Positions 1 to 63,232 of a stretch of 64,000 nt of DNA are shown here, in pieces. This DNA is from Acanthornis magna (Eukaryota; Chordata; Aves; Passeriformes; Acanthizidae). Position numbers and translations under genes: made by a program. Position 1 is the stretch's first letter, and every line of letters begins with the position of its first letter. The notes beneath the pieces are model-generated. The model was not told the origin of the DNA and ran no database searches. It saw nothing but the letters and a program-made list of their open reading frames with translations. Location: positions 541,501 to 605,500 of the forward strand of contig JAWUZG010000330.1 in the NCBI GenBank assembly GCA_036785705.1, in the 5' to 3' direction.

Positions 1-3000
1 GATCTGCATGCACGGGCCTTGTATGAGAGGCTGTGAACTCAACTGGTCACAGAAGTTAAGAGAATCATAGAATTTAGAGAGTGAAGTTGCTAGAGGGTGG
101 TGTTTCCATCCCCTCCCCCTCTATCTCCCTCTCCCCCATCCCCCCCAATTTATTTGCTTGCCTTGGATAGAAAAGGCTCTGCTGCAGCAGATAAATGACA
201 CATTTGGGAAAACAGACAAGTAAAAAAGTGCATATTCTATTCAAGAAAACATTTGAAGTCTTTAAAGTCTCCAGCACCTTTCAGCCTACCAACATGTTTT
301 CTATCTGATAATAACTTGTTCCAAGTTGAATTACCATGGTTGGCTGCATCCTATCACACCTTTGGATTAGAAAAGTGGACCTTAGAAGTATTTGTGCAGC
401 ATTCTTGATTATTCACAAGCTAGCTCTTGATTGAAGTAGGCTTCAGCAAAACACCCAGTTCACACCTGAGTGTAGAAAAAGCTTTGAACCATGCCTCAGG
501 AAACTGACCTTCACAGATTATTATGACCTTCAAACTGTTGCTACATCACTGAAGTGAGTTTTTTGCAGAATGCGATGATAAACCTGTGGATTACTGGGTG
601 ATACTATGTCAACACCTTTGAAAAGCACTTATCACAGAGTCATACCTGAAGAAATTATTTAAAAAACTAATTCAGAGCAACAACAGCAAAAAAATTTCTT
701 CATTGTGTATCAGTTTTCGCTGTCAGCATACATGCTTCTATATATAGGAATATTAATAAAACAATAAAAAGGAGTCATGCTTTATATTTATGGAGAGTTA
801 CAGGAAAGTGTTTGCAAAAATAAACTTTATTACTACTATCTGCATATTATTACTGTTACTGTTGTTATTGGTAGCAGTATCAACGAAGTAGTCCTTAAAG
901 ACAAGATTTAGGAAAAAAACACTGTTCTATTGGGAAATGTACAGCTATAGAATAGAAAAAAAAATTATCAGTCCTTCCTTCTTAATAAAGTACCTAATTA
1001 ATGCTTAAGGATATTTCAGTAACTGTGGCATGACTTGTTGAAGAATCATAGCCAATGTTTAAAATGGAGTTTCAGGAAAGTTTGTTGAAATTATTAGAAT
1101 TGTCACAACAGGGAGAAGGAGACAATAGTCTTGGTGTATGGGCTATAGTTGCAGTAAAGTACCCAGAGCTCACTCAGATCTGAACAGATAGTTAAGCAAG
1201 TTTTAATCAATAAAGTATGTAAAATTTTTAATAAATACACATGAATTAGTGGTCAATTTTCTACTAAGTTTTTGTGAAAACCTAACTAAATGCATCTCAA
1301 ATGTTACATGCATACAAATAATGACACCAGCTCATGGGTGTCTGGTGTCAGGTCAGGGAGCTCTCAGCTTTGAGAGGTAGTCCTGAGAGGTGTCCCTGCC
1401 TGAGTGAAGATCACCAGGGCACAGCCAGGTGCTGCAGAGGGACAGCTCAATGGACCGTGATGGCTGCAAATATTTATAGTGTAAAGTGACAGTCAGCAGC
1501 TGTAGTGAGATTTTCTGCTGTGTTCATGCAGTTCTGGCCAGTAATCAGCACAGCCTCCAGCCAAAGCAGCCTTTGGGGAGTCGGTGCTGAGTTCTCACTG
1601 ACATCCACCCACGATGGGATTAAGTTAGGTTAGTCCTACCTGCTGAACATCAGTTTGCGCCAAAGTCCAGTTTGTTCAAACAGGAGGAACACATCCATCA
1701 CAGCTGAGTTTTGCCAATTTTCATCATTCAGGATGTTCTGTCTTTACACCTGCAGAAGTGTTTAAACATGAAAATTCTAAGCATCAGAATTATACAAGTG
1801 AAGTTGAAGCTGTTATATTTGAAATCACTAAGGTACAAGGACATTCTCATTAAAAAGACTCTGTACACTTATTCTTCATTTTTAAAGACCCCTACCTATT
1901 CAGCTAAAGATATATTCAAAAAGAGAAAGAACAAAACAAGATAATTAAATTATTTGGTGATTACTTGTATTGTTTAGCATCAATGAGCTAAAACCCACAT
2001 TCCTTCTCTCAGTATTAAAGCAAAAAAACCCCTTTATTAAAATAATTATTTCTTAAAAATTTTCTGGCACTTAAATCACTGGTAGAAAAAGAATTCACTT
2101 TTTAAAAAATTGGTTTTATATATTCTGATGGAAATTTCTTAACAAGCTGTGAATTTTTAAAATATAATCATATTTATTCTTTGCAAATTCTGAACCAAAT
2201 GTACTGATAATAATTGAAGGAGAAATTTATATTATGTCATAACCTATACTCATGCCTCCGGGTTTACATAGGAACTGGCATATTTTATAATCTCATTTCT
2301 TGACAATAACTGGAGTGAAAACAAGGGCTACAGTGACTCATGGGTCATCCTTAAGAAGTCTGGTAGCATTGAATGCAGAGAGAGATCGCTGAAGTCATTG
2401 ACAATTTGAGAAATATCTTCAGCTGCACGGTGAAAAAGGCCAGAACTCCTCACTGATTCTGAAAGAACATATAGATCTCTATACGTTAAAGTATAAGACC
2501 CAGTTCTTTCCTCTGTTTAACTATAGATGTGTGATCTATAGTTATACTGAGGAAATATAATCCTATTTTTAGAAATATGTTTTAGGATATGAAATAGTTG
2601 TATCATCTCATAATGAATTTTTATTTCTGTTCACTAACCATTAAGACAATTTATATATGAAATTGGCAAATGTGACTATACGTAAACTGAAAATGGTGAT
2701 CATTCTCGTAATTTTTCAGAAATGCTTAGGTTTATTCACCAACTGTTCCCAATTTGAATAAAACATTATATTAAACAATCAGAATTAAAATACTATATTT
2801 TCTAAGTAATATCTGCAGTCTAAAATTTTTCTAAAGTGACCAGACCTTAAGGTGCCAAGGTTTTGTAAATCAAATTCTTAAACACTGCATATTTCAGTAA
2901 CTGAATGCATTCTAAAGGCTCCTGGAATTACTCCACTATTTCTACTGATTTGGCACTGCTCATTAGAAAATCCAATTTAATCAAGAGTATCTGGCTTTCA

Positions 3001-6000
3001 GTAATCAGAAAGTTAATGTTGCATTGATTGAAGAGTTAAGACATGATGCTCTGTTTCTTTTTTACAGTTTTAATTTCTTTCTTGGGTTTACTTTCTACAT
3101 ATTATAGGTGATTTACCAGTATTTACACTGAATGATGTCAATGTATTTCTTTTTAGTATGCTAGATAAATTCTGAAATTATTTATCTTGTGGCTTTTTCT
3201 GATTTGTACAATATTCTTCTATTTTTTCAGCTTCCCTTACATTATTCTTTTTCTTGGCTTGCTTAGGATATTCTTATTCCACTAAGTAATATAAATTGCA
3301 CTATTTTTAAACCCACCTCTTTTGATCTTCTTCAGAGGCTATTCCTTCTCTACCTTGTGACACGTTAAGAGAAAGATTTTCTATATATTTTCTTAGTGCA
3401 ATCAATCCACATTCTAAAAAAACACCTATTGTATGTTTATAATTGCCATTTACTTGTAGGTATGTAAAGTTTTTTAATCTACTACTAATGTAGTATGCTA
3501 AAAGTAGATAGTGTCCTAAATGTAATTTTGTCTTTTTAACATCTGTTTCCTTAATTTGTCCTGTTGAATAATTTACTAAGAGCTTAATCAGCGGTTTGAC
3601 TGAAAAGTGTAAAGTCTTTTTCACACTGATAAGTTGGATGCCCAGTTCTTCTTGGTCTGGAATTAAAAGTAGTTTTTTTCATATAACATGCACTGCAGAA
3701 TATTGCTACTTCATACATTTGTGAATTTTGAAATAAAATAGGTAACGTTTTATACATTTTTATGTTGTTTTTAGATAAGAAAATAACTGTGACATAAAAC
3801 CTAAAGATAGAGCTACAACACTTAAATGCCTCTGGTATCAGTCATATTTTTCATGTGAATTTACAGATTTCATTGCAAGGCAAAAAAACCAGTACGACAC
3901 CCAAATCATGTTTCTACTCTTGTTAAATCAATAAACGGCTATACATCCTCTGTTCTATCCTTATAGCATCTTGTTTTCCATAGTTACTGAGATGTCATAT
4001 TAATTTTGTTCTTTGACATTTGCTGAAAAACATATTAAAAAGATTGTATTTTACTACTATTTATTTGGACCCAAATGTGCATAAATGTATTGGGAGACGA
4101 TTAAGAATACATGACAGTATTTAAAGTAAATGAACACCTCTTATTAGAGAATTATGTATAAGCACACAGAATTTTTAAATTATGCAGAATGGAAAAACAG
4201 AATTCATCATTCGGATAACCTCGAGTTCTTTTAATTACTTTAATACCTATTTTTCAAACCTGTATAAACCACAGTCTTTTTAAATTTACATATCTACTCC
4301 ACTCTCTCTGTATTGGAAGTATATAAATACGTAACTATATGTATTAATTTCTGCTTCTCTTGTTGTGTTTCACAGAGATATTTTTTCATATTTATATTTA
4401 CACCCATTCCAAACTCTTAAGTTGTACTGCTGCTTCTCCTGCCAAACTACAGGAAACATGAGTTTGCTCATTGACACTGGTGTTAAATCCATACTCTCAT
4501 AATTCATTAGCCAAAGGTTATATTTATCCAAAAAGACTGAAAATTGTTGCTTGAGCCACGCTATCTCTAATTGTCTATACCAGCATTTCACACAGTTCTC
4601 CTTTTCTCGGTGGCGTCAAATCAATGCAAACAGGAACAGCGCTCTCTTTGCTTCTTAAACTCTCATGGTTTTCAGCTCATCAGCTTGTGCCCTGATGGGT
4701 CAAAAATTGAAGAGACAAAGAAGTAAGCCAAGAGGATAAGAAGCACCAATGTGTTCTAATAGCTTGTGCAAGCTATCAATTTTGTAGCTTCTATGATTCA
4801 TTATTCTTTTTCAAATACTGTCAATTTATCTATCCTGAGACTTTTTACAACCTCTTCATTCCCCTCCTCTCTCAAATGTAACCACAGGTACACCAAGAGG
4901 GGTTCTGCTCTCTGCCTTTTAAAGCTTAGGGTGTGAAGTTTAAACTGAGCAAGTATTATCTGTCTCTCCAAGTGGACTAAGTCAGGTTCTACTGACTGTG
5001 ATGTCAAGAATTAATCAGTCTTTATATTTGATGCTTCACAAGCTATATAGAGAGAACCATCTGAACTTCCACTACACACAACTTTCCAGTTCAGAACCAT
5101 AAGTTATCATATAATTTTAATAATTTGAGACTTTAAGGAATCCTGAATTGAGTGTATCACATTACTTTTGAGGAACAATCATACAGTCTGGAATACACAT
5201 TCTTACTATTTATTTAGCCTAATACTTAAACAACTTATCAGTGGTTCAGAGATCCAGCAATCAAACTGATGTCCATTTATTTGCTCCCAGAGTATGCAAG
5301 CAGATAATGTAATCATCTTAACCAACCATCTTCAATTTATGCTTACTGTCTTAGCTGAGTCCTTCCTAAATCTTTCCACAGTGGTTTCACCCTTGTAGTT
5401 ATGTCCTAAGATTTTCTGTTTTGTAAGGGACAGTATCCTCACACTTCTGGTAGGGATTTCTGTATTGTGTATGAGTGTCACAGTTTTAGCGTATCACCCT
5501 AACAGCTCAGACTCAAATGAGGCACATTATGTTGTTTACTTCTCAAGAAAACTATACACAAGTAAACTTGTCTGTATTAAATAAGTACTTGAACACTTTG
5601 AGCAATTTGTCTTTATTATATGAATGTCAAGACCAAAAATAAATTGTATTCCAAATCATCCTTCTCTCCAAATGTTCCATATTATCATTTGGTTCCCCTG
5701 ATATCTGCTGTCCCAGCAGCCTTTGGCATGCAAAAGACAGGATCACTGGGAGTGCAGAAACACGAGAAGAGAAAGGACTGTTCATAGCACCAGAGGCAGT
5801 GCCCTGATGTTAACACCATGCTCTAGCACAATGCACAATTTTTGATTTGGAAACCAGTCCCCGGGTAAGTGGAAAACGTATATCCAACTGGCACATGGGA
5901 AACATCTAGAGGGACAAGAGCTAAGTCCATCAGTTGGCAGCAAGAGCGGCACAAGCTTCCTGAGGTACTAGAATCCTTTTTGAATAGGAAGCATGAGAGG

Positions 6001-8169: not shown

Positions 8170-9075
8170 ACAGTTCTGATTCTCCATATCAGGGCCCTGC
8201 ATGTCCTTGCAGTGGGTCTGATAGCTGGTAAGAGACATCAATATGATTTTTTTTATGCTTCAACATATGTTATACACGAGGTGAAAAATTATTTTAGGGG
8301 TGGTACACATACTGGGAGTTCTGTCCCTGGGGAGGCTTCATCTGGAAGCCAATCAGGGCAGAGAAAGCTTCCACTATTAGTCTGCAAGCGATCCCCCCAA
8401 ACTCTTGCTGGTGGGGCAGCCCAAGATGATCGAGAAAAAATGACAGGGGAAATAATGCTATAGGAGGAGCCCTAGCACATAAAAGCAGTGAACTGTGACC
8501 CAACCATGGCCATTTTCTTTGGGTTTCTTGGAGGGAGCAGGGCCTCACCTGGAGGATCAGCTTGGGCCTCCCCCCACCGCACTTTTTTTTTTTCTTCTGT
8601 GGTCCTGCTTCTTCCCGGGCTGTGTTCCCTGTCCGCCCCTGCCCTGCACTGCTTTGCCGTTTCCCCGAGGCAGCTCCGTGGCCGCCACAGCCTCGTGCTC
8701 TGCTGTTTCCCCGGCGGAGCAGCCGCCGCTGCCGCTGCCAAGAGCCGCGCCCCGAGCCTGCCAGCCGCAGCTGCTCCCCGAGCGTGCCCGTGGCCGCGGC
8801 AGGCTGTTCTTCACCCACGGCAGGGACACGCAGCTGCTGCTGCTGCTTGGAAATTGTGCCCAGCCGCTCACAAGAGCCACACGAACTCATCTCAGCTTGC
8901 AGCACACACACTCCATTCGCTGAGCTTTCGCTGACAGGGCACACAGGGTCCAGCGGTAACGATCTGTGGTATTCTCTTTCTCTCTTGGTCTCTCTTTTTC
9001 CCTCTTTATTCCTTTCTCTGTCCTCTTTGGTAGGAACACTTACCCTTCTTTATCAATAAACAGTTCTCAGACACA
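8170..9075 (+). mobile_element. GC-rich promoter block, possibly an LTR
   Basis: This is a GC- and CpG-rich island of about 0.9 kb in AT-rich surroundings. Plus-strand signals are in the order expected of an LTR: a CCAAT box (AGCCAATCAG) near 8347-8356, a TATA-like ACATAAAAGC near 8475-8484, and an AATAAA at 9053-9058. The interval from TATA to poly(A) signal, about 570 bp, is long for an LTR R region. I could not identify clean TG...CA ends, a target duplication or a primer-binding site. Several overlapping open frames on both strands between 8290 and 8945 come from the high GC content and show no domain. An alternative is a host CpG-island promoter or a first exon. The signals are visible directly; the LTR label is inference. 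Confidence 0.4.
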
Positions 9076-10594: not shown

Positions 10595-10944
10595 TGTCCC
10601 ATCCCAACGTGAGATGGGGGGAGGAATCTTACCAGATTCCTAAAATGAAATTAGACACAAACATTAGATCAATATTACACTTGTGAAGTGTTTATTGATA
10701 AGGAAAACCAAAGAAAAAGGCCCTAAGAGACAGAAAAGGCAGAAGCAAAGGAAGAAAAAGAAGGAAGGAGTTGGAGAGACACACAGGGTGTTATTAACAT
10801 GGCTCTCACGATGCCACATTGATTTTCAGTTGGCAGGTGGAGTGTGGGGGCTGCAAGCGTGGACAGGGGTGTGACTCCGATGCTTGGTGAATAGCGTGGT
10901 TCTGACAGTCATGAACACTGAACACTGAGAATGGTCAGTTCACA
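10595..10944 (-). mobile_element. ERVL-like LTR next to a tRNA-Leu PBS
   Basis: The minus-strand 3' end of the LTR (…GGGACA) is fixed by the adjacent primer-binding site. An AATAAA at 10691-10696 lies about 96 bp from that end, consistent with R-U5. The 5' boundary is a guess: a TGTGAACTG at 10944 would give a 350-bp LTR. I found no second copy of this LTR in the window, so the provirus is probably truncated. The element lies directly downstream of the protein gene, in the same orientation, and supplies the first canonical poly(A) signal after that gene's stop codon. Confidence 0.5.
10691..10696 (-). terminator. Candidate poly(A) signal of the gene
   Basis: AATAAA on the minus strand, about 375 nt after the stop codon of the two-exon gene. 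It appears to lie inside the ERVL-like LTR, so it may serve both LTR transcripts and the host gene. Confidence 0.55.
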
Positions 10945-11070: not shown

Positions 11071-13194
11071 CTACTCTTCTTCGGGGTATTTGAACAGTTC
11101 CTGGGTCATAAGAATGGCCTTCTTAACAACCTCAGTCCGATAACAGTCTTTTGCATCCACCCACACCACAGCATCAGGTGGGGAGATGTGTGTCTCATGT
11201 GCTTGGCCTTGGGCATGTCCTGCAGGTCTTTCTGCAGCTATTGATTCTTCGGGGCTCAGTTCCTGGTCCTGCTGCTCCTGTGGGTGTTCAAAGGGTTTCT
11301 GGACCACAAGCACAGCCTTTTTAACTACCTCTGTCTGATAGTAGTCTTTTGCATCCAGAAATACTGGAGCATCAGCTGTGCAACTGTGCCTGGTATGTCC
11401 TGGGCTCTCTGCCCCTCCTGCTGGGGCTGTTACTCTCATCCCTTCGTCAGGGCCTTGTTCCACATCCCTTTGTTCTTCCGTGTGCTCCTCAGATCCCTGG
11501 ATCACAATAACAGCTCTGCTCAGGATCTCATCTGGGATGTACTGGCCTATGTCTGGGAGAGCCGGGCCATCATCAGCTGTGGGGCTGTGTGGCACATGTC
11601 CCGGCCTCACTGCCCCTGCTGCTTTGCCTGTTACTGCCCGTGTTGCATCCGTGCTGTGTTCTTGCTCTTCTGTCTGCCTGTTGGGTCTCTGGATCAAAAT
11701 TGCAGCCTTGCTCATGAACTCACTGAAGGTATGCTGAGCTGCCTCCAGATCCAGTGCACAGGATATGGGTGGCTGCTGTTCCTGCTCTCCTGCCCCATGT
11801 GTTGCACTGAAGGCCCTTGGCAGAGCCCTTGGGACACTCTTGATGAAGGACATCCGTCGCTCCCGAGCCAGGGCATCGATGACTGTGGGGGAAGGAGATC
11901 TGAAGGCACATCCTGCATCTGTTCCTTCTTCTGTTGTTTCCTTCAGGCTCAGTTGCAGGTCCAGCTCTTCTTGCGGCTGCTGGCCAGGGCCCTGTTTCAC
12001 AGGTTCCTCCTTGCCCAGGCCCTCAGCCCTGGCAGACTGGGCTGCCTCTGGCAGAGCCTCTTTGCAGCCTGTTGGCTGCTGCCTCTTTTGCTCTCCTTTG
12101 TCTTGGGCAGCAGTTAAGGCATTTAGAACACTCATTGACTTCCTATGCCACATCTGGTTCCCTTCAAACAGGGCATCCAGGAATGCAGACAAAGGGATTG
12201 TGCAGGAGTGGGCCTGGCCTGGTTCTGGGCCAGCTGCTACCAGCTCCCACACCAAAGAGGGCTCTTCCTGAGCTGCTGGGGTGACAATGGCTGTGCCATC
12301 TTCTCTTTCATGGTCTTCATCCAATCGACATTCCTGCTCCTGAGATCCTTCTGGTGTGGCCATTGGTATTGTTCTGTCATCTGTGGGGCAGCTGGGACCT
12401 TCCTTGGGACCAATGTAGAAGTCTTTGCTGCCCTCCAGGCCCAAGGAATTGACGAGGGGATGGGCAGGAGCTGACCCGATGTCATTTGTCCTTTGCCATA
12501 GATCTGCGTGTATTGCATCTTCCCATTCCTCCTCAGAGAGCTCAAAATCAAGGCCATATTCCCACTGCTTTTCCTCCCACAGCCATGGACCAACGGCGCC
12601 TTCACACTCCTGCGCCTCGGTCAAGGCCACTGACTCACTGGTTGAAGCTTGGGCTCCCAGCTGCTCCAGTATCACAGTATTGTCTATGGTGCCCACAGCG
12701 AACCTCCTACGTGTCAGCCGTGACTGCTCTGGTGCAGTGTAGTCAATCGTCCATGGGAGGCTTGTGGCCCTATCCTCTGCTGTCGCAGGCCATGCCATTC
12801 TGGTGTTGGCACTCACCTGCCCAGGTGTGTCACGGAGCCCCCCGGAGCGCCTCAGGGAGGAGCCCTGTCCTTGGCTCCATGGCTCTCTGCCCTGCAGGCT
12901 ATCCTGCTGCTGTGGCAGGGTGGCTTCCCAGGAGCCGTGGGCCTGGAAGCTCCTGTGTGGCTCCTCTGAAGGCCTCCTCTAGAAAGACACAATAACCTCC
13001 TTCAAAACAGGCCCGTGCCCCCACAGCCATGAAGTGCTTTGGTGGCACTCAACACGCACGGTCAGCCCTGCCTGGTCCTGCTGTTCCCCTTGGTGCTGGT
13101 GGCCTGTCCCTGCACCTGCATCCCTGCTCAGGGAAGCTGATGCAAACATGGTACTCACCTGTGCTGGCTCTGCTGCTGGCTGCTTCTCCTCCAT
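11071..13194 (-). CDS. Uncharacterised two-exon repeat protein, ~647 aa
   Basis: Join exon 1 (13194-13159, 12 codons) to exon 2 (12978-11071, 635 codons plus stop). The ATG is in a strong GCCATGG context. The donor is CAG|GTGAGT and the acceptor TTGTGTCTTTCTAG|AGG. The 180-bp intron is removed in phase 0, and the frame then stays open for 1.9 kb. No signal peptide or membrane span is evident. Residues about 144-173 form an acidic, tryptophan-rich segment. From about residue 258 the protein consists of six diverging repeats (conserved Asp at 280, 380, 488 and equivalents). The last four carry a hydrophobic core of the form AILIQ/AVIVIQ/AVLVVQ/AILMTQ starting at residues 437, 501, 567 and 633. 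The repeats are separated by Glu/Gln-rich linkers, and the last one is cut short by the stop. The exon is much more GC-rich than its flanks. I do not recognise the family. Gene structure is well supported; function is unknown. Confidence 0.8.
11074..11616 (-). repeat. Tandem ~198-bp coding repeats (66 aa)
   Basis: The C-terminal third of exon 2 contains three adjacent units with nearly exact 66-codon periodicity: about 11616-11413, 11412-11218 and a truncated unit 11217-11074. Each has a His/Ser/Thr-rich lead, an Asp, the hydrophobic core ending in Gln (Thr-Gln in the last), and a Glu/Gln-rich tail. Similarity is visible in the DNA as well as the protein, for example in the blocks encoding DAKDYY/DAKDCY and EVVKKA. 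Older, more divergent units lie further upstream in the same exon. Confidence 0.8.
12979..13158 (-). other. Intron 1 of the two-exon gene
   Basis: The 180-bp intron begins GTGAGT and ends TTTCTAG. The minus-strand frame runs open from exon 1 through the intron and stops exactly at the TAG of the acceptor. An unspliced transcript would therefore encode a 71-residue product, whereas splicing restores the long frame. The acceptor has a fair pyrimidine tract. Confidence 0.8.
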
Positions 13195-13302: not shown

Positions 13303-13311
13303 CCTTAAATA
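13303..13311 (-). promoter_or_regulatory. TATA box of the two-exon gene
   Basis: The minus strand reads TATTTAAGG. It lies about 110 bp upstream of the ATG, so transcription would start near 13275-13282 and leave a 5' UTR of about 80-90 nt. A TATA-driven compact promoter fits a tissue-restricted gene better than a housekeeping gene. Confidence 0.6.
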
Positions 13312-13319
13312 CCCTCACT

Positions 13320-13399
13320 GTCACAATGGCCCCGTGTCACAATGGCCTCTGTTTTGTAGGGCACTGCATCACAATGGGCCACTGTCATACAGGGCCACG
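13320..13399 (-). promoter_or_regulatory. 16-bp tandem array with SOX-like cores
   Basis: Five units of 16 bp start at 13320, 13336, 13352, 13368 and 13384 (plus-strand numbering). Three of them contain TCACAATGG exactly (13321, 13337, 13369). The third unit is strongly degenerate and the fifth partly so. ACAATGG matches the HMG-box (SOX/SRY-type) core. The array begins 9 bp upstream of the TATA box, the normal place for activator sites. Periodicity and position are visible directly; factor identity is inference. Confidence 0.5.
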
Positions 13400-41799: not shown

Positions 41800-43516
41800 G
41801 AATGGGAAGGCATCTCATGAGGTGAGCACAGTCAGCTTTTAAATGGGGACAGGGACAAGGCAGAGGTGTTTAATGCTTTTTTTGCCTCTGTCTTCAACAC
41901 TCATGAGGGACCAAGGAGGTGTCAGGGCTCTGAGCTGGAGTACCATGACTGTGAATATGATCAATTCCCAGTTGATCCTGAACTTCTGAAGGGATCTGCT
42001 GCTCCAGCTGGATCCCTACAAAGCTATGGGCCCTGATGAGATTAATCTGAGAATACTTAAAGAGTTGGTGATGTCATCATGAGCCTCTCTCAATAAATTT
42101 TGAATGGTTTTGGGAGTCTGGAAATTCCCATTTGACTGGAAATTGACTAACATGACACAGTTTTCAAAAGCAGCTATATGGAGGACCACAGAAACTACAG
42201 TCCTGTCAGATTCACTTCAGTGTCTGAAGAGAGAGAAAGTTATTCTGGGAGGGATTGGAAAACATCTGAAAGACACTCCAGTCATTGGTCATAGCCAGCT
42301 TGGCTTCATGAGAGGAAAGTCCTACATACCAAACTTGTTTTCTTTTTACAACAAGATAATTCACACAGCAGATTAAGGGAAGCCAAATGTTGTAATTTTT
42401 GATTTCAATAAAGCATTTAACATTGTCTCTCCCAGAATTCTTCTTGGCAAAATGTTGAGCACATGGCTTGACAGCACATCACGGGGTGGGTGAGCAGCTG
42501 GCTGAATTACCAGGCGCAAAGGGTTATAGTAAATGGGGTGACATCAGGCTGCTGACCCTAGTGGGGCTCCACAGGGCTTCATCCTCAGCCCCGTGCTCTT
42601 CAACACTTCATAAATAACTCATGCAGGATTCAAAGGTGTACTAAGTTTGGCAATGATACTTAACTGGGAGGAGCTGTTGGCTCAATCGAAGGAAGAGAGG
42701 CCCTGTAGAGAAACCTTGATAAATAAAAGGGCTGGGCAATCACCAACTGTGTGGAGCACAACAGTGGCAAGTATTGAATTGTGCATCTGGGATGGGGCAA
42801 TCCTGGATATACAGACTGATTGGGGAATGAGAAGCTGGGAAGAAGTGCCGTGGAAAGGGACCTGGGGGTTCTGGTTGATGGCAAGTTGAGTATGAGCCAG
42901 CAGTGCCCTGGCAGCCAGGAGGGCCATCCCTGTCCTGGGGGCATCAGGCACAGCATCGCCAGCTGGGCAAGGGAGGGGATTGTTCTGCTCTGCTCTGCAC
43001 TGGGGTGGCCTCACCTTGAGTGCTAGGGATAATTTTGGGCACCACTGTATAAGATGTAAAGCTGTTAGAGTGTCCAAAGTTTGGAGGCCATGAGGATGGT
43101 GAAGCGTCTCAAGGGGAAGCCATTCATGGAGTAGCCTGAGGTCACTTAGGTTTTTCAGCCTGGAGAAGAGGAGACTGAGGCAAGACCTCATTGGGCTCTT
43201 CAACATCCTCATGAAGGAAGGAGGAGTGGCAGACACTGCTCTCTTCTCTCTGTTGACCAGTGACAGGACCTGAGGAGATGGCCTGAAGCTGAGTCAGGGG
43301 ATGTTTAGGTTGAATCTTATGAAAAGGTTTATTCCCAGAGGGTTTTTGGGCACTGGAATATGCTCCCCAGGGCAGTGATTGCAGTACCAGTTTGAACGAG
43401 CAAGAGGTGTTTGGACAATGCTCTCAGACATGTGGTGTGATTATTGGGATGTCCTGTGCAGGGCCATGATCTTTGTGTGTCCCTTCCAACTCAGCATATT
43501 CTATGATTCTATGAAA
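41800..43516 (+). mobile_element. CR1 LINE with partial RT domain, 1.7 kb
   Basis: A continuous plus-strand CR1 copy. It starts with sequence encoding the KAEVFNAFFASVFNTHEG-type segment upstream of RT (about 41860-41910). It passes through RT core blocks (FSKAAIWR near 42160; GFMRGKS near 42305; FDFNKAFN near 42400; GAPQGF near 42560) and then the ORF2 C-terminus, and ends CATATTCTATGATTCTATG. Frameshifts, stops and a shortened region near 42605 show it is inactive. Only the 3' part of a full CR1 (about 4.5 kb in the family) is present. Confidence 0.9.
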
Positions 43517-45119
43517 TAATTTCAGTTATATTGGTTTTATCCTCCCTAGTGAGAGAAATGTTAATTTCACTCTGTCCGTATACATCTTCTGTGTGTTAAG
43601 AAATTGGAATGTGCTTTTGGAAATCATGTTGAAAGACAGCTAGTTACTGTCCTTTCCCTTAGGTTTCTTTTTAAATGTTTTCAACAACTGGAAGAACAAA
43701 TATTTTTATCCTCTTTTCAAATTTCCAAAATATGCAAGGCTTTCCTTTAAGCCTGCTGAGTTAAAGCTGCTAGTCAACAGGAATTGTATGAAAAAAGTTG
43801 TTACCAGATCTGTGTAAATTACAGAAAGTTAAAGTATTCTATAATTAATATAGTTTATTTTCTTTAGAAAGGGGACTTCTTAATTAAGGTTGCTTGTGGA
43901 AACGGTTTATTAAATGTAAAAATCTTGGGAATTGCTTGCACTGCATCTCCAGCACATCTAAACCCATACTTTGAAAGGTTTTAAAACAATTTTAAACAAA
44001 CGTAAACACACTTCAGTAATGTTTCGTGGAAAATGGCAAAACTTTATATTTGCTAGCTTCCTGGTTTTGACTGAGGCTAAATTATTGTCCGTATTCATAA
44101 AGACATCATTTCAGGGAATGTTTGAAAAGAGGATCACCCTCATTTTCCCAGAAGTGTATGAAAGTTCCATGTCACAGTTCCAAGACAGAAGATTTGAATG
44201 TTTTGTGTATACTGTATTTAATTTTGTGTGATGTTTTAAAACATGGATTCAGTTCTTTTATTTCAATATACTGCACAACAGAAGATGTAAAAGAAATAAC
44301 CTTACAGTAGGATTTCTTTTATAAGGAAGTTCAAATTATCTACATTAGGACTCCTTTCCTTGCAGTTTATGAAGTAGCACTACAGAAAAAGAAGACAAAG
44401 ATCTTCAAATATTTTAAGAATAAAAACTTGAAAAGTGTGGAAAACTCAAATGTCATTTCCCCAGATGTTTGAATGCGGATTTCCTGAAATTTAAATACAA
44501 AGTTCAAAAGGCCTTGAGGAAAATCTTTTGAGATTTACTACCCTCTCAGAGATGTGAATGCCTCTTCTATTCCACCTTAGCACTATGCATGTCTATACAT
44601 CCCTCTATGCACCTGTTCTCATAAATGTCAGGTAAACTCATTTGAAATAAAACAAGACAATCATTAACAAATATTTGAAATTCTCTACAAGCCTTCATTT
44701 AGAAAAAATATTTTTATTTTCATGGATTTTCATGTCAAGACAATTTATTTGAAGACTTTTTTCTTACAGCCGATTAAGCAAGAACTGTGAGGATTTCAGA
44801 AATACAGATAATAGCTAATGCACTGTATTCACTATTGCAATATCATCTGAACAAATGCATTGTATTATTTATTTTATTTCGTCTAACAGTGAGAAGACAT
44901 TTGCCACAGGGACAGAGAAATCACCTATCATATAAATTTTAACTCAATGAATGCATATTATTAAGTTAATCTTGTCGGGAAAGCTTCCCACTATTTGCTG
45001 TAACAGCTGGAAAGGGACACCACAAATTCCAATACTTTAGTTTGGTCCAAAGCCCTATAGAAAGCTTATCATAGGGTCATATGATTTTCCTCTAGACCCT
45101 TCAAGCCCTATGTTAAATT
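43517..45119. other. AT-rich unique DNA, no gene seen
   Basis: No recognised repeat or gene. An 86-residue plus-strand frame at 43971-44231 has no domain. Confidence 0.5.
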
Positions 45120-45610
45120 TTTATTAAATTTGTGATTGTGTTGGGAAGGACATTCAACGATCTTTCAGTTCAATTCCTCCGCCATGGAGTGCGATATATT
45201 TCATTAGAACAGATTGCTGAAAACTCTGTTCAGCCTGACTTTGAATATTGCCTGTGGCAGAGCATCCACATCTTCTCAAGCATCTCACCACCTTCTTAGT
45301 AAAAATTTCATCCTTATATCCATTCAATCTTTTTGTTTAAAGTCATTGTACCTCATTCTGCTCCTTATTGTCATTACAAGTCCTTTTGCAGCTTTCTTTT
45401 CAGGCCACTGTATATTTAAAACATCTGTAACAAGGTCTCTCCAGAGCTTTCCTGATCCCATCCCTGAACAGTGGAGCAGCATCCCTCTGTTCTTCAGGGG
45501 ATACAAGTCTCTGGTTCCACTGCCTATTACTTTCCTTCTTGCACAGTAGTTTGACCAGAAGGTCCTCAATCAGCTGTGCTGCCCTTCTGCTTTCTGTCCC
45601 TAATTTCTTA
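45120..45610 (-). mobile_element. CR1 LINE fragment, antisense
   Basis: Reverse-complement CR1: GGGAAGGACATTCAACGATC near 45143, TTCAATTCCTCCGCCATGG near 45170, then CTTCTCAAGCATCTCACCACC and CAGAGCTTTCCTGATCCCATC. Diverged and 5'-truncated. The 111-residue plus-strand frame inside it is incidental. Confidence 0.75.
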
Positions 45611-48489
45611 AAGATGGGAATTTAAAAATCTTGTGCTGTAAGAATAATGTCATCAAAAAATTGCCAGCTCTGTTCAGCTTCTTAATCCCTAAAGGCAGGT
45701 TCCTGGGGATCCCATCCACTAATTCCATATGTTCACTCTCCTAAATTTTCGTCTCACTGCAGCTTCTTCCTCAACAGCTGTTATGGATGACTAGATGGCA
45801 GCTTAAATGTAACACTTCTGAGTTCATCAGGAACGCACAGAGAAAGAGACAGTCATCAAACAACTATTAGCACCTCAGTTTTGAATAAAAATAATTATAA
45901 ACATGAGTATACTTGCACATATATATATAAGTATACTTGTATATAAACGTACTTTTTAGTTATGTGTTTGTAGTAAGTTTTCACTTGAAATTTCTAAGTT
46001 TCTCCATTTCTGCACGTTTCTTCTTAAGAAAATTAGTTTTATCAAATCTTGTCTGATTAATTTCTTGAGAAGAGTTAATTTTAAAGGCGTAGTTAATTTC
46101 TCATTAATGTCAACAGCTTTTTTTTTTTTTAAAGGTGCCACTCCTCTTTTATCAAGGTACGGCAATTGGAGTCCTACACATTAGTGCCAAAAGGAAATTG
46201 ACCTCTAAGTGCTTACCTTTGAATAACAACATATATGAAAAGTAGCACTTTAGGAAAGTATGAAGGAAGAAAAAATTTATTTTCATGCTGAAATTATTTT
46301 ATTCCTCCTTTTCGTTTTTTCCCCAGCATTCCTGTAACTTGTTTTGTACTAATTTTATTAAATCCACCATTTACTTATAGGTGTTTCTGTGATTTAATAA
46401 CTGAGATTTGCAGTACAAGTAAATGAAAACTCTCATAAAATAGACTACTTACAACTGCGATCAAGAAGAAAAGTTGCATTATTTCTGCTTCTCACACTAA
46501 GCAAAGGGAAAGGGCTATTTTGCAAATCAATCATTAACTTTTCTCATAAAGGACTGAAACATGAAAAATAATCAAAATAATTTAAGAAAAACCTTAATGT
46601 GTTGGAACACAAGAAGCTTCATTGAATCACTGTAAAGGTCAGAGAGCCAGGAGAAAACACACCTGAAAAGAACATTAATTGCAAAGTTCAGGATAGAATT
46701 AAGTGTGATGCTGGAAATAAGGAATTTGAAAAATTACTGGAAGAAACAAAAAGGTAAAAATCTGAGAATCCAAGAGGACTCTAAGAATTAATGAGACTGA
46801 GATCTTTTTGGAAAACAGTATAGTCATACATGAATGGAACAGATAGCAATTAACTGTGTGAATGTCATTAAATGTAAAAGAGGAATTATTTACTTTGGCA
46901 TGCATATTTCCTGCTTGGCTTGCAAATCATGAGCAGTTTGGGAGTAGGAGGATTAAGACTGCTATCACTACATCATGATAGTTCTGTGTGCTCCCTTTTT
47001 TTGCTGAATAGAACATGATCAGTTCATCTGGGAGTGAGTACCTTGGTGCCTGTGTAAGGTCACGGCTGCAGGATCTGCTGCTGGACCACAGCGACTTCTG
47101 CACTCACAGAGGATGAGGCAGCTCCATCTGTGCTGTCACTGACCCACACGTAGTGTTCAGTTACCATCAGAGCACTACAGCCTCCTCCAGCCTGCCCTGC
47201 CTCAGAGCCACATGCAGCTCTTGGGAGAAGTTTTACAGCCTTTGAAAAAATGCTGAGGGGCACTAGTCTACTTGTTGTATTCACTGCACAATGCTTATCT
47301 TTGAAAGAATCTTTCTTGTGGAGAAGTTAGCAAGTAGCAGCTGGAAATGTGCTGTTTATCATCTAGGAGCCTTGAGGCAAGATTCCAAAAAACAGCACAA
47401 GATACCAGACGCTGAAAGGAATAAAATCTGACAGAAATAAGGAAAGGTGCTAAATTCTGCAGCTTCATTATTTTCAGTGATAACTGACAAAATGTCACCA
47501 GTATTTTAGTATTGAATTCCCTTATTAAGTGGAGTTTGGATTTGTTAAAGTCTGCGGTGTGATTTTCCAGGGATGGCCTTTCATGTGACTGAATAAAGAG
47601 GGTGGACAGCCAAGTGCAAAGCCCGTATTCAGGTACATATTTGCAGTATTTATTTACAGCACATTCCATGTAATCTGCTGTGAAGACAGTTGCTTCACGG
47701 CTTGTGAAATGAACAACGAAAGAAGATTAAAAAAATAAAATTCAGAGTAAGTTTGACAGAAAGAACATGAGAAAGAATCAGAAGAGTCCACACTTTTTGG
47801 GTATTGCTCCTACTCAGGTAGGTATAATTTTGGTTGAAAACCAGAAAAATGTGCCAACCTGACTGAGCCAAAACCAAGTATTTCCGGTTTTCGCTTTTGT
47901 CCTTTTATATTTTTTTCCCATGGCATATTACATTTAGGGAAAAAACAGTGTGCAGTGTTAATGATCTAATGATGCCCACAACCATGACATGAAACTCATG
48001 GTTTTTCACAGCTTTTTTTGCCAAACATACTATTTTATTACCTAAGTACTCAAGGCCACTCACATTAGGACTGCATTATATTTTTCAGTAGCCTTTAACT
48101 CAATGCAATTCTTCCAACGAGTATTTTGTTCACTCTAAACATGCTTTTAAGCATCATCTATCTTATTCAGATAAGAACCAGAGATATTGGAAAAATAATC
48201 TAATTTTCTAATAAAATAGATGCCAGATAACACTGAGACAGCCAGGGCATAGAGCAGCATCTTTGCTATAGCTGTCAATCCCTTATCATATTTTCTATGG
48301 TTGCTGGAGTCAGCATTCACATATGATTACATAACAGTATAATGTCTCTTCCAGATTTCCCTTTGTCAGGTGTTTTCCTGCTAAACTTAAGAAGTAACAC
48401 TGTTTCTGCTGATAATTTTGTATTGTGGTTAGGAATTATAATATATTAAAAAAGGATTTTTTCACCACACACAAGCACATTTGAAGATT
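45611..48489. other. AT-rich unique DNA, no gene seen
   Basis: TA-rich runs lie near 45918-45945. A GC-richer patch at 47050-47260 contrasts with its flanks but is unassigned. A 124-residue minus-strand frame at 47295-47669 lacks a domain and is within chance expectation. Confidence 0.5.
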
Positions 48490-61470: not shown

Positions 61471-62709
61471 CCCTGAAAAAATAAAATAAGCTTCAACTGT
61501 ACTTCTGGGGCTGACATGGTACTCTGACAACGCTTTTCTGTCTAGGAAAATACAATAGAAAGAGAAGGCTTTTAAGAAATAAATGAATCAAACTACTTTA
61601 AAATTAATGAGTACAGATAAGAAAATATGAAGCTTTATATTACCCTATTTCCAAGTCTTTTCCTGATTGGTCTGCAATTGAGGCATGTCAGAAGTCCCAT
61701 TTATGAATGCCCACATAGCAAATCCATATTAGAGAACATAATTTCAAGAAACATCTTATTCTTTGTCATGTTTTGATGTTTTTCGTATCTGATTGGAACT
61801 ACTTATGACTGAAATTCTAAGTCAAAGTATCTGAGTAATTACACAAGCTCACGGGCAAATACTGTCTATACGCATATTTATCTAGTCAGACTATGATCTA
61901 TGATATGCAAATGTAAAGCATAAATATAGTTTAGAGTGTAAAAGATTTCTATACTTTCTACTGGAGATTATAAAACATTTTGTAAGTGCATTCATGACAA
62001 GGTCATATTGTATCCTGTGAAGAAATGGTTTTAAAACAGGTAAGTTTTTTTCCCTTTTCAGATTCTCAGTGGAAGTGTGTCACACCTCCATGGCTTTCAT
62101 TAGCCACAGAAAGTCTCTAACAAGCAACGACAATGACCATGCACCATCCCTTCTCTAGAAGAAAAGCTGACATTGCATACTATGAAGGACTTCCTTTCAC
62201 TAAAAGGTAGAGTAACTAGTGGAAATAATACAAAGGGTAATAACTGCTAGGTAAATAGTGGAATCCCAAGCCCTAAGTCAGGCTCCTTGCTTTCTGTGAA
62301 AATATACAGGAAGGGTTAGGTTTCTGAATATGGAACATGCAATATTATTTGTATATTGAGCAGACTCATCCTGAAATAAACAATATAAAATCTTGCAAAA
62401 ATATGTATCTTAGAACAAACACATGTCAAAAATTAAGATGTTTCTGTGCACCCTTAGTTCTGAATAAGTGGTTGTTACATGCCTAAGCCTTTCAGGGAGG
62501 GCATGGTGGTGGGAAGAAACAAATTTGTGTAGCTCATCCTCCTACTGAAGTGGAGACAAGTAGCTGAAATTACTTATTATGCTTACAAGCACAGCGTTGA
62601 GATCAGGTATTTGGATTCTAGGGCTGTGAGTCATAATTTGAATCTTTTACTTTCCCAGAGAAAGCCTAAGTGTTTGGGTCTTTCTCTGAAATTCGAACCT
62701 CCTTTGTCT
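61471..62709. other. AT-rich unique DNA, no gene seen
   Basis: No supported feature. Confidence 0.5.
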
Positions 62710-62761
62710 CTGTGTGTGTGTGTGTGTGGTTGGTTGGTTGGTTGGTTGGTTGGTTGGTTGG
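62710..62761 (+). repeat. (TG)n followed by (GGTT)n
   Basis: A TG run (62710-62728) passes directly into about eight GGTT units and a T-run. Confidence 0.95.
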
Positions 62762-63044
62762 GTTTTTTTTAAATTTCCTGGAAATATTTAAAGAAGTCCT
62801 GCTCTAGGATGACAATGAAGAAGAGCAAAGGAATATTGGCACTTTTACATGAAACAGTAAGGGAGGAAAGCCATGAAGAGATTGATTCTAGAAATGAAGG
62901 ATCTTCTCTGCAACAACACTGGACCAACAACTCAAAAAGAAATTTTAAAAAAAAAAGAAAAGCAAGAAGTCAGTACTTCTATAATCTTACTGTTCCACAG
63001 GTGTAGAACAATGGTTGGTTTTCATAGTTGTTTAGGGGGTTTTT

Positions 63045-63112
63045 GTGTGTGTGTGGGTGGGTGGTTGGTTGGTTGGTTGGTTGGTTGGTTGGTTGGTTGG
63101 TTGGTTGGTTTG
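63045..63112 (+). repeat. (TG)n/(GGTT)n array
   Basis: GTGTGTGT and GGGTGG interruptions lead into about twelve GGTT units on the plus strand. Confidence 0.95.
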
Positions 63113-63155
63113 GGGGTTTTTTGGGAGGAGATGCTGTTATTGGGTTTTTTGGGTT

Positions 63156-63232
63156 ATTTGGTTTGGTTTGGTTTGGTTTGGTTTGGTTTGGTTTGGTTTG
63201 GTTTGGTTTGGTTTGGTTTGGTTTGGTTTGGG
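63156..63232 (+). repeat. (GGTTT)n array
   Basis: About fifteen pure GGTTT units. Together with the GGTT arrays it generates long spurious Gly/Trp/Leu/Val open frames on the plus strand and an Asn/Pro/Thr/Gln frame on the minus strand. Confidence 0.95.

What the first reader, a model, noticed from the sequence alone, without database searches (positions are those of the whole stretch)
11071..13194. Unrecognised two-exon gene encoding a repeat-rich protein of about 647 aa
Independent signals agree: Kozak GCCATGG start, consensus donor and acceptor, phase-0 join, 635 open codons in exon 2, an upstream TATA box and a downstream poly(A) signal. The intron-retaining frame ends exactly at the acceptor TAG. 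The protein matches no family I know. Its C-terminal half is built of six diverging repeats, the last three spaced exactly 66 residues apart. An uninterrupted frame of this length in a repeat-laden, AT-rich region implies either selection or a recent origin.
Basis: partly seen in the sequence, partly recalled or inferred. Interest (0 to 1): 0.75.

Follow-up and report, generated by a model that had tools for sequence, protein, structure and literature searches.

The report
Coding stretch apparently turned into intron
A many-copy, uncharacterised bird gene family seems, in one branch, to have turned a piece of its own protein-coding sequence into an intron, while sister copies in the same genome still read that piece as protein, which would make a rare event in vertebrates directly testable.

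Summary
In detail: a 635-codon frame (12978-11071, minus strand) plus a 12-codon first exon gives 647 aa if 13158-12979 is spliced out. It is not an orphan. The genome holds at least 55 copies of this gene (A) and 14 longer paralogues (B); uncharacterised relatives occur in songbirds, suboscines and, distantly, other birds. All 14 B copies and 14 of 20 homologous proteins read through it; the other 6 models begin downstream or at its end. Two point differences separate open codons (B: CAG-GCGAGT ... TTC-AAG) from an in-frame GT-AG intron (A: CAG|GTGAGT ... TTCTAG|AGG); the acceptor TAG is a Lys-to-stop change. All 55 A copies carry donor, acceptor and ATG; 28 also have a second stop inside the intron, yet exon 2 has no indel and one stop in 40 aligned copies. 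The segment's four fixed A/B differences all lie in the splice signals. Best reading: de novo intronization in a fast-evolving, probably disordered, ampliconic protein family. No RNA evidence was available; an amplified pseudogene or a downstream start remains possible.

The parts
13321..13377 (-). Three CCATTGTGA boxes (13377-13369, 13345-13337, 13329-13321) upstream of the TATA-like box; resemble SOX sites (recalled)
   Evidence: 3 boxes in 37 of 40 A and 8 of 9 B copies examined, 2 in the rest
13304..13311 (-). TATA-like box TATTTAAG
   Evidence: present in 40 of 40 A and 9 of 9 B copies examined
13159..13194 (-). Exon 1 coding part, 12 codons (MEEKQPAAEPAQ), start in GCCATGG
   Evidence: ATG in 55 of 55 A copies; none at this place in 14 of 14 B copies, ACG in 13 and ACA in L056
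12979..13158 (-). 180-nt phase-0 GT-AG intron; homologous to 60 coding codons in the B paralogues and in relatives; acceptor TAG = Lys-to-stop
11071..12978 (-). Exon 2, 635 codons plus stop, probably mostly disordered acidic protein
12811..12819 (-). Second perfect donor CAGGTGAGT inside exon 2 (TPGQ|VSAN); eight relatives' protein models lack what follows here
11689..11742 (-). Helix-like repeat 1 (AAQHTFSEFMSKAAILIQ)
11497..11553 (-). Helix-like repeat 2 (DIGQYIPDEILSRAVIVIQ)
11299..11355 (-). Helix-like repeat 3 (DAKDYYQTEVVKKAVLVVQ)
11101..11157 (-). Helix-like repeat 4 (DAKDCYRTEVVKKAILMTQ)
10691..10696 (-). AATAAA, candidate poly(A) signal
   Evidence: an AATAAA within about 700 nt after the stop in 40 of 40 A copies; 0 of 9 B copies at the same offset, where the longer B frame is still running

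Best explanation
The locus is one copy of an ampliconic branch (A) of an uncharacterised bird gene family whose ancestral gene reads the 180-nt stretch as ordinary coding sequence. In the A branch, after it split from the B branch, two point changes created a canonical phase-0 intron out of exon: codons GCG-AGT became the donor GTGAGT (a C-to-T change in a CpG) and Lys AAG became the acceptor TAG, with two further C-to-T differences in the pyrimidine tract. Splicing removes 60 codons, the stop among them, and joins exon 1 to a 635-codon exon 2, giving a mostly disordered, acidic 647-aa protein with C-terminal helix-like repeats. Shown here: the sequence states in every copy found, the coding state in paralogues and homologous proteins, absence of indels in exon 2 of 40 copies, confinement of fixed A/B differences in the segment to the splice signals. 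Inferred: that the intron is actually spliced, that the protein is made, and the direction of change (B state ancestral, supported by homologous proteins, whose DNA I did not see). A role in the germ line, perhaps as a sperm-flagellum scaffold, is only a lead.
For: Read-through of the segment in 14 of 14 B copies and in 14 of 20 homologues (P0006 from the segment's fourth codon); at the stop position K, R or T, never a stop, in the 15 that cover it. Donor, acceptor and ATG in 55 of 55 A copies. A second stop (CAA to TAA) inside the segment in 28 of 55 A copies, as expected of non-coding sequence, while exon 2 shows 0 indels in 40 aligned A copies against 10 in 2681 bp of flanks (12 distinct events less 2 at the alignment edge; Poisson P about 0.001). 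The four fixed A/B differences in the segment (55 A, 14 B) are at intron positions 2, 165, 174 and 178 (binomial P 0.0003); around the acceptor they form an island (3 of 18 sites against 1 of 396, Fisher P 0.0003) in a stretch otherwise homogenised between A and B. Acceptor score is 3.6-4.1 higher in A than in the three B copies scored (recalled weights). A and B protein stems are equally long (0.15 and 0.14). A/B length differences inside exon 2 are multiples of 3 apart from a compensating 1+5 pair (one A against three B copies; a 91-nt gap at the cut end of the alignment left out).
Against: No RNA data of any kind. dN/dS A versus B is about 1.0 (0.93-1.02 over five pairs) and within A nonsynonymous changes exceed neutral expectation (54 non, 12 syn, 1 stop; P 0.04), compatible with weak constraint as well as with positive selection. 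The intron also shows no indel in the same 40 copies, though it is short. A perfect donor is expected about 2.4 times per window, and another equally good one lies at 12816. The acceptor ranks only 6th of 278 AGs, and a stronger one ending at 11883 would break the frame. Copies sit in a recently duplicated segment (flanks 30-34 kb away 99.6-99.9% identical in 4 of 4 tested), so 55 copies are not 55 tests. The donor difference sits next to an unhomogenised block (5 fixed differences in the 36 nt of exon 1), so only the acceptor side is an island. About 68 neutral changes would give 2.5 stops and none with P 0.08, so the single stop seen is not by itself significant. No retrocopy with the spliced junction was found (0 matches). 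Four of 14 B copies carry a stop further down their frame, so B copies are not all intact either.
Confidence: 0.52

Rival explanations
1. Amplified pseudogene: a nonsense mutation (Lys to TAG) killed the A copy, and hitch-hiking in a large recent amplicon made many copies that still look intact because little time has passed.
For: Very recent amplification (40 flank copies 97-100% identical); dN/dS about 1; one of 54 full-length copies already has a stop in exon 2 (L032).
Against: No indels in exon 2 of 40 copies while flanks have 10; all 55 copies keep ATG, donor and acceptor; fixed differences persist only at the splice signals inside a homogenised stretch; half of the A-B changes laid on exon 2 at random would leave no stop in only 1.4% of simulations, though this covers the time before the nonsense change too.
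Confidence: 0.25
2. Downstream initiation: the first 71 codons are a small upstream frame or decay; translation starts at an internal Met (exon 2 residue 61, MAWPATAED...) and no intron is needed.
For: Two homologue models begin at the corresponding Met (P0001) or shortly after it (P0003); B copies lack the ATG used by A (14 of 14), so start position is labile in this family.
Against: A retains the strong-context ATG in 55 of 55 copies, which would start a 71-codon (or, with the second stop, 34-codon) frame first; does not explain the donor or the fixed pyrimidine-tract differences.
Confidence: 0.13
3. Ancient facultative intron (exitron): the stretch could always be spliced weakly (GC-AG in B), and A only made splicing obligatory.
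For: B has CAG|GCGAGT and TTCAAG|AGG, a possible weak GC-AG intron of 180 or 171 nt, in frame; eight homologue models lack the stretch that follows TPGQ further down, suggesting that this family tolerates in-frame facultative introns.
Against: No model among the 20 homologues joins across the 180-nt stretch; the acceptor of the three B copies scored is -3.0 to -3.5 against 0.5 in A.
Confidence: 0.1

Closest known systems
Intronization of exonic sequence (Catania and Lynch 2008; Irimia et al. 2008, as cited in PMC12124190)
   Same: Coding sequence homologous to an intron in a sister copy; length a multiple of three; changes at the splice sites, no insertion.
   Different: Here at least 55 intronized and 14 non-intronized copies coexist in one genome, with signs of gene conversion between them, and the acceptor is itself a nonsense codon. 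Splicing is not yet shown. PMC12124190 (passages read) found three human cases and calls the mechanism rare.
Exitrons (PMC4484396; only the search listing with the start of the abstract seen)
   Same: In-frame intron inside a coding exon, as the B state might be.
   Different: An exitron when retained is coding; the A segment carries one or two stops and cannot be.
Uncharacterised bird proteins such as LOC111940831 (Cyanistes), LOC130265173 (Oenanthe), LOC114070078 (Empidonax), DUI87_05066 (Hirundo)
   Same: Homologous over the exon-2 protein.
   Different: They read through the 180-nt stretch or begin downstream of it or at its end; 34-63% identity to A in a 20-row alignment.
FSIP2 (Pfam PF15783)
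   Same: Two ibis relatives score above the Pfam cut-off (35.7 and 40.4 bits against 27), over a region that in P0022 also aligns to the family.
   Different: No match among the 19 rows of the A1 alignment, P0018 and P0020 and P0019, nor in P0021, P0023 and P0024; 0 matches in this genome, in a search whose controls also rang nowhere.

Membership tests
Intronization | Intron is homologous to exonic coding sequence in relatives or paralogues | tested here: met
   14 of 14 B copies and 14 of 20 homologues
Intronization | Length a multiple of three, frame kept across the join | tested here: met
   180 nt in 53 of 55 A copies and 171 nt in 2 of 55, phase 0
Intronization | Segment is spliced in the derived lineage | not testable with these tools
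   no RNA data; signals only
Intronization | Exonic state is ancestral | tested here: met
   suboscine, clade-C and other oscine proteins read through; these are predicted proteins, not transcripts
Exitron | Retained form stays open in frame | tested here: not met
   TAG in 55 of 55 A copies, extra TAA in 28 of 55; the B form would meet it
FSIP2 | Match to PF15783 above the curated cut-off | tested here: not met
   A exon 2 has no Pfam match at E up to 1, and FSIP2 is not among the families matched by the 19-row alignment; two ibis relatives do match
AKAP (PKA-anchoring helix) | RII-binding amphipathic helix motif (motif recalled) | tested here: not met
   strict motif 0 times in A; relaxed core 4 times against 1.35 in shuffles, reached by 13 of 300 shuffles; strict motif enriched in the distant P0021 (13 against 2.7) and P0024 (8 against 2.7); SmAKAP match below cut-off in P0010
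Ampliconic gene family | Many near-identical copies within large duplicated segments | tested here: met
   55 A copies at 96-100%; flank 30-34 kb away 99.6-99.9% identical in 4 of 4

The most novel reading that the evidence does not exclude
A nonsense mutation was rescued by, or itself created, a new intron: one base change made a stop codon that is also the splice acceptor, and the intronized copy then spread to at least 55 loci while at least 14 paralogues keep the same stretch coding, selection holding the two states apart at the splice-site bases against gene conversion.
Probability: 0.4. Interest if true: 0.75.

Novelty: new member of a known kind. Interest (0 to 1): 0.6.

Why it matters
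How introns arise is a long-standing question, and vertebrate cases made from exon are few (three in a survey of human genes against 3,493 vertebrate genomes, PMC12124190, passages read). Here intron-like and read-through copies of one gene lie in one genome, at least 55 of one kind and 14 of the other, differing by four fixed bases in the segment. That makes the order of events, the role of the stop codon and selection on splice signals testable with a single RNA sample. It also shows that annotation of such families by open frame alone may miss or split genes.

Tried and rejected
Chance open frame: rejected. Recent or de novo orphan gene: rejected by homologues. Known domain: no Pfam match for A exon 2 and no profile match in PDB sequences at E up to 0.1; one PDB chain at E 0.036 by single sequence and ten Pfam families matched weakly by one or two of 19 rows (best DUF5758, E 0.0002, one row) were not pursued. 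FSIP2 membership: suggestive only in an ibis, not accepted. AKAP motif: strict form absent from A. Structure: AlphaFold2 mean pLDDT 35.5, no usable fold, so no fold search was made. Spliced retrocopy in the genome: none with up to 2 mismatches. Chromosome: seven relatives lie on contigs of 70-85 Mb, and the Oenanthe assembly is of a male (passages read), so W is excluded for that species; I suspected Z but found no proof. Whether this genome holds the third (C) clade was not learnt: the search with P0013 did not complete. Literature searches; I saw nothing on this family in those listings and claim no more than that. Papers: passages of PMC11276731, PMC12124190, PMC3565874 and PMC10234393; the rest only as listings. 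Rows dropped before a count: L001-L008, which repeat L009-L016; two alignment-edge indels; a 91-nt end gap; B copies L073-L077 and A copies L058-L072 were fetched only around the segment and so are not.

Full report
What was claimed and what is there. The longest open run in 2000 Markov sequences modelled on exon 2 was 308 codons against 635. Four helix-like repeats are clear, the last three exactly 66 residues apart.

The gene is one of many. In its own assembly (1.48 Gb, 1515 contigs) the exon-2 protein has 97 scored matches, a lower bound by the tool's own note. They resolve into 55 copies at 96-100% identity (group A; 54 full length, 53 of these without a stop, one with a stop; one cut by a contig end) and 14 longer paralogues at 71-77% over their main matched pieces (group B; open frames of 816-921 codons, 4 of the 14 with a TAA inside the matched part). 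A segment 7.6-9.1 kb from the gene is present 40 times at 97-100%, and 1.3-1.7 kb stretches 30-34 kb away are 99.6-99.9% identical in 4 of 4 other copies tested. Copies occur in both orientations on the same contigs. This is a large, recent amplification.

The family. Seventeen proteins match the exon-2 query; a profile search adds seven and a last search one more ibis protein. P0001-P0020 are 18 named passerine proteins, suboscines (Empidonax, Willisornis) included, and 2 unnamed ones. P0021 (Calonectris), P0022, P0023, P0025 (Theristicus) and P0024 (Haliaeetus) are more distant. In a protein tree of 24 rows (2 A, 3 B, 19 homologues), A and B are sisters with full support, next to the other oscine sequences of their clade. 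None is named for a function except P0024, called treacle protein-like; no chain in the solved-structure set matches the profile at E up to 0.1.

The intron is old coding sequence. In 14 of 14 B copies the stretch (180 nt, or 171 nt in five) is open: GCG-AGT at its start, TTC-AAG at its end. Of the nine B copies fetched whole, eight continue to the end of a frame of about 900 codons and one (L049) stops 378 codons after the segment; the other five were fetched only around the segment. Among the 20 homologues, 14 read through it (P0006 from its fourth codon); five start downstream and one, P0007, in its last codons. The residue at the A stop position is K in 13 of the 15 homologues that cover it, R in one and T in one. 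In 55 of 55 A copies the same positions read GTG-AGT and TTC-TAG. The stop that ends the retained frame is therefore a Lys-to-stop change, and it is at the same time the splice acceptor.

Is it spliced? No RNA was available. The donor ties for the best of 96 GTs between 13400 and 11000 (8.51 with recalled weights), with a second one at 12816; a perfect donor is expected 2.4 times per window by chance. The acceptor ranks 6th of 278 AGs, and a stronger one ending at 11883 would break the frame. Against three B copies the A acceptor is 3.6-4.1 higher on the same scale. Across 55 A and 14 B copies, only four positions in the segment are fixed differently: 2, 165, 174 and 178, namely the donor's second base, two pyrimidine-tract C/T sites, and the stop/acceptor base. 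In a wider alignment (40 A, 9 B) one more, position 129, counts as fixed beside a gap; the acceptor end stands as an island, 3 of 18 sites against 1 of 396 in the flanking homogenised stretch. The donor difference lies beside exon 1, which has five fixed differences in 36 nt, so it is no island of its own. Twenty-eight of 55 A copies have a second stop within the segment, as expected if it is no longer read.

Is exon 2 still kept? Within 40 A copies, 1908 bp of exon 2 hold 68 variable sites and no indel; 2681 bp of flanks hold 101 variable sites and 10 indels of 1-5 nt after dropping two at the alignment edge; exon 1 and the intron, 216 bp together, also have none. Codon changes are 54 nonsynonymous, 12 synonymous and 1 stop against a neutral 0.68:0.28:0.04 (P 0.04); for changes private to A in the first 500 codons the counts are 25, 3 and 1 (P 0.036). 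Between A and B, dN/dS is about 1.0 over the five pairs computed, but conversion between A and B makes this a mosaic. Random change of half the A-B amount would leave no stop in 1.4% of simulations, and 68 changes in 8%. Together this fits a reading frame that is held while the protein changes fast; it does not prove it.

What the protein might do. AlphaFold2 with a 20-row alignment gives a mean pLDDT of 35.5, so most of it is probably disordered. Two ibis relatives match Pfam FSIP2, a sperm fibrous-sheath protein, above its cut-off, and in one of them (P0022) the matching region aligns to the family; none of the passerine members scanned does. The strict AKAP helix motif (recalled) is absent from A, though enriched in two distant relatives. 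A sperm or germ-cell role is a lead, not a finding.

A second soft spot. Another perfect donor, CAGGTGAGT, lies at 12819-12811 in the conserved TPGQ|VSAN; eight homologue models (P0005, P0007, P0008, P0009, P0015, P0016, P0018, P0019) lack the sequence that follows in others, the break lying at TPGQ or, in P0015 and P0016, just before it. The family may thus tolerate facultative in-frame introns, which would make the A event an easier step.

Verdict. The best single reading is an intron made from coding sequence in an ampliconic, fast-evolving bird gene family (0.52), against an amplified pseudogene (0.25), a downstream start (0.13) or an older weak intron made obligatory (0.10).

Noticed in passing
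12811-12819 (minus strand): Second perfect donor CAGGTGAGT in exon 2; eight homologue models lack the sequence after (or just before) the corresponding TPGQ, and A and B lack the Q codon that precedes the rejoined part in the relatives.
   Followed up: partly
L049-L057, L073-L077: None of the 14 B copies has the ATG that A uses (ACG in 13, ACA in L056); two (L053, L056) have an in-frame ATG further upstream.
   Followed up: partly
exon 2 around codons 430-460, A versus B: A 1+5 nt pair of gaps suggests that B carries a short compensated frameshift; A resembles the other oscine proteins there.
   Followed up: no
L069, L070: Two A copies carry the 9-nt deletion found in five B copies inside the intron yet keep A-type donor and acceptor, as expected of gene conversion limited by selection or of shared old variation.
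   Followed up: no
2001-3500 and 43217-47273: Flanking DNA is amplified along with the gene (40 copies at 97-100%; 99.6-99.9% identical in 4 of 4 stretches 30-34 kb from the gene).
   Followed up: partly
8297-9049 (minus strand): Stop-to-stop frame of 251 codons in a GC-richer stretch (48% GC).
   Followed up: no
62697-63231: Arrays of TGGT and TTTGG repeats.
   Followed up: no
13321-13377 (minus strand): Three CCATTGTGA boxes just upstream of the TATA-like box, kept in A and B.
   Followed up: partly
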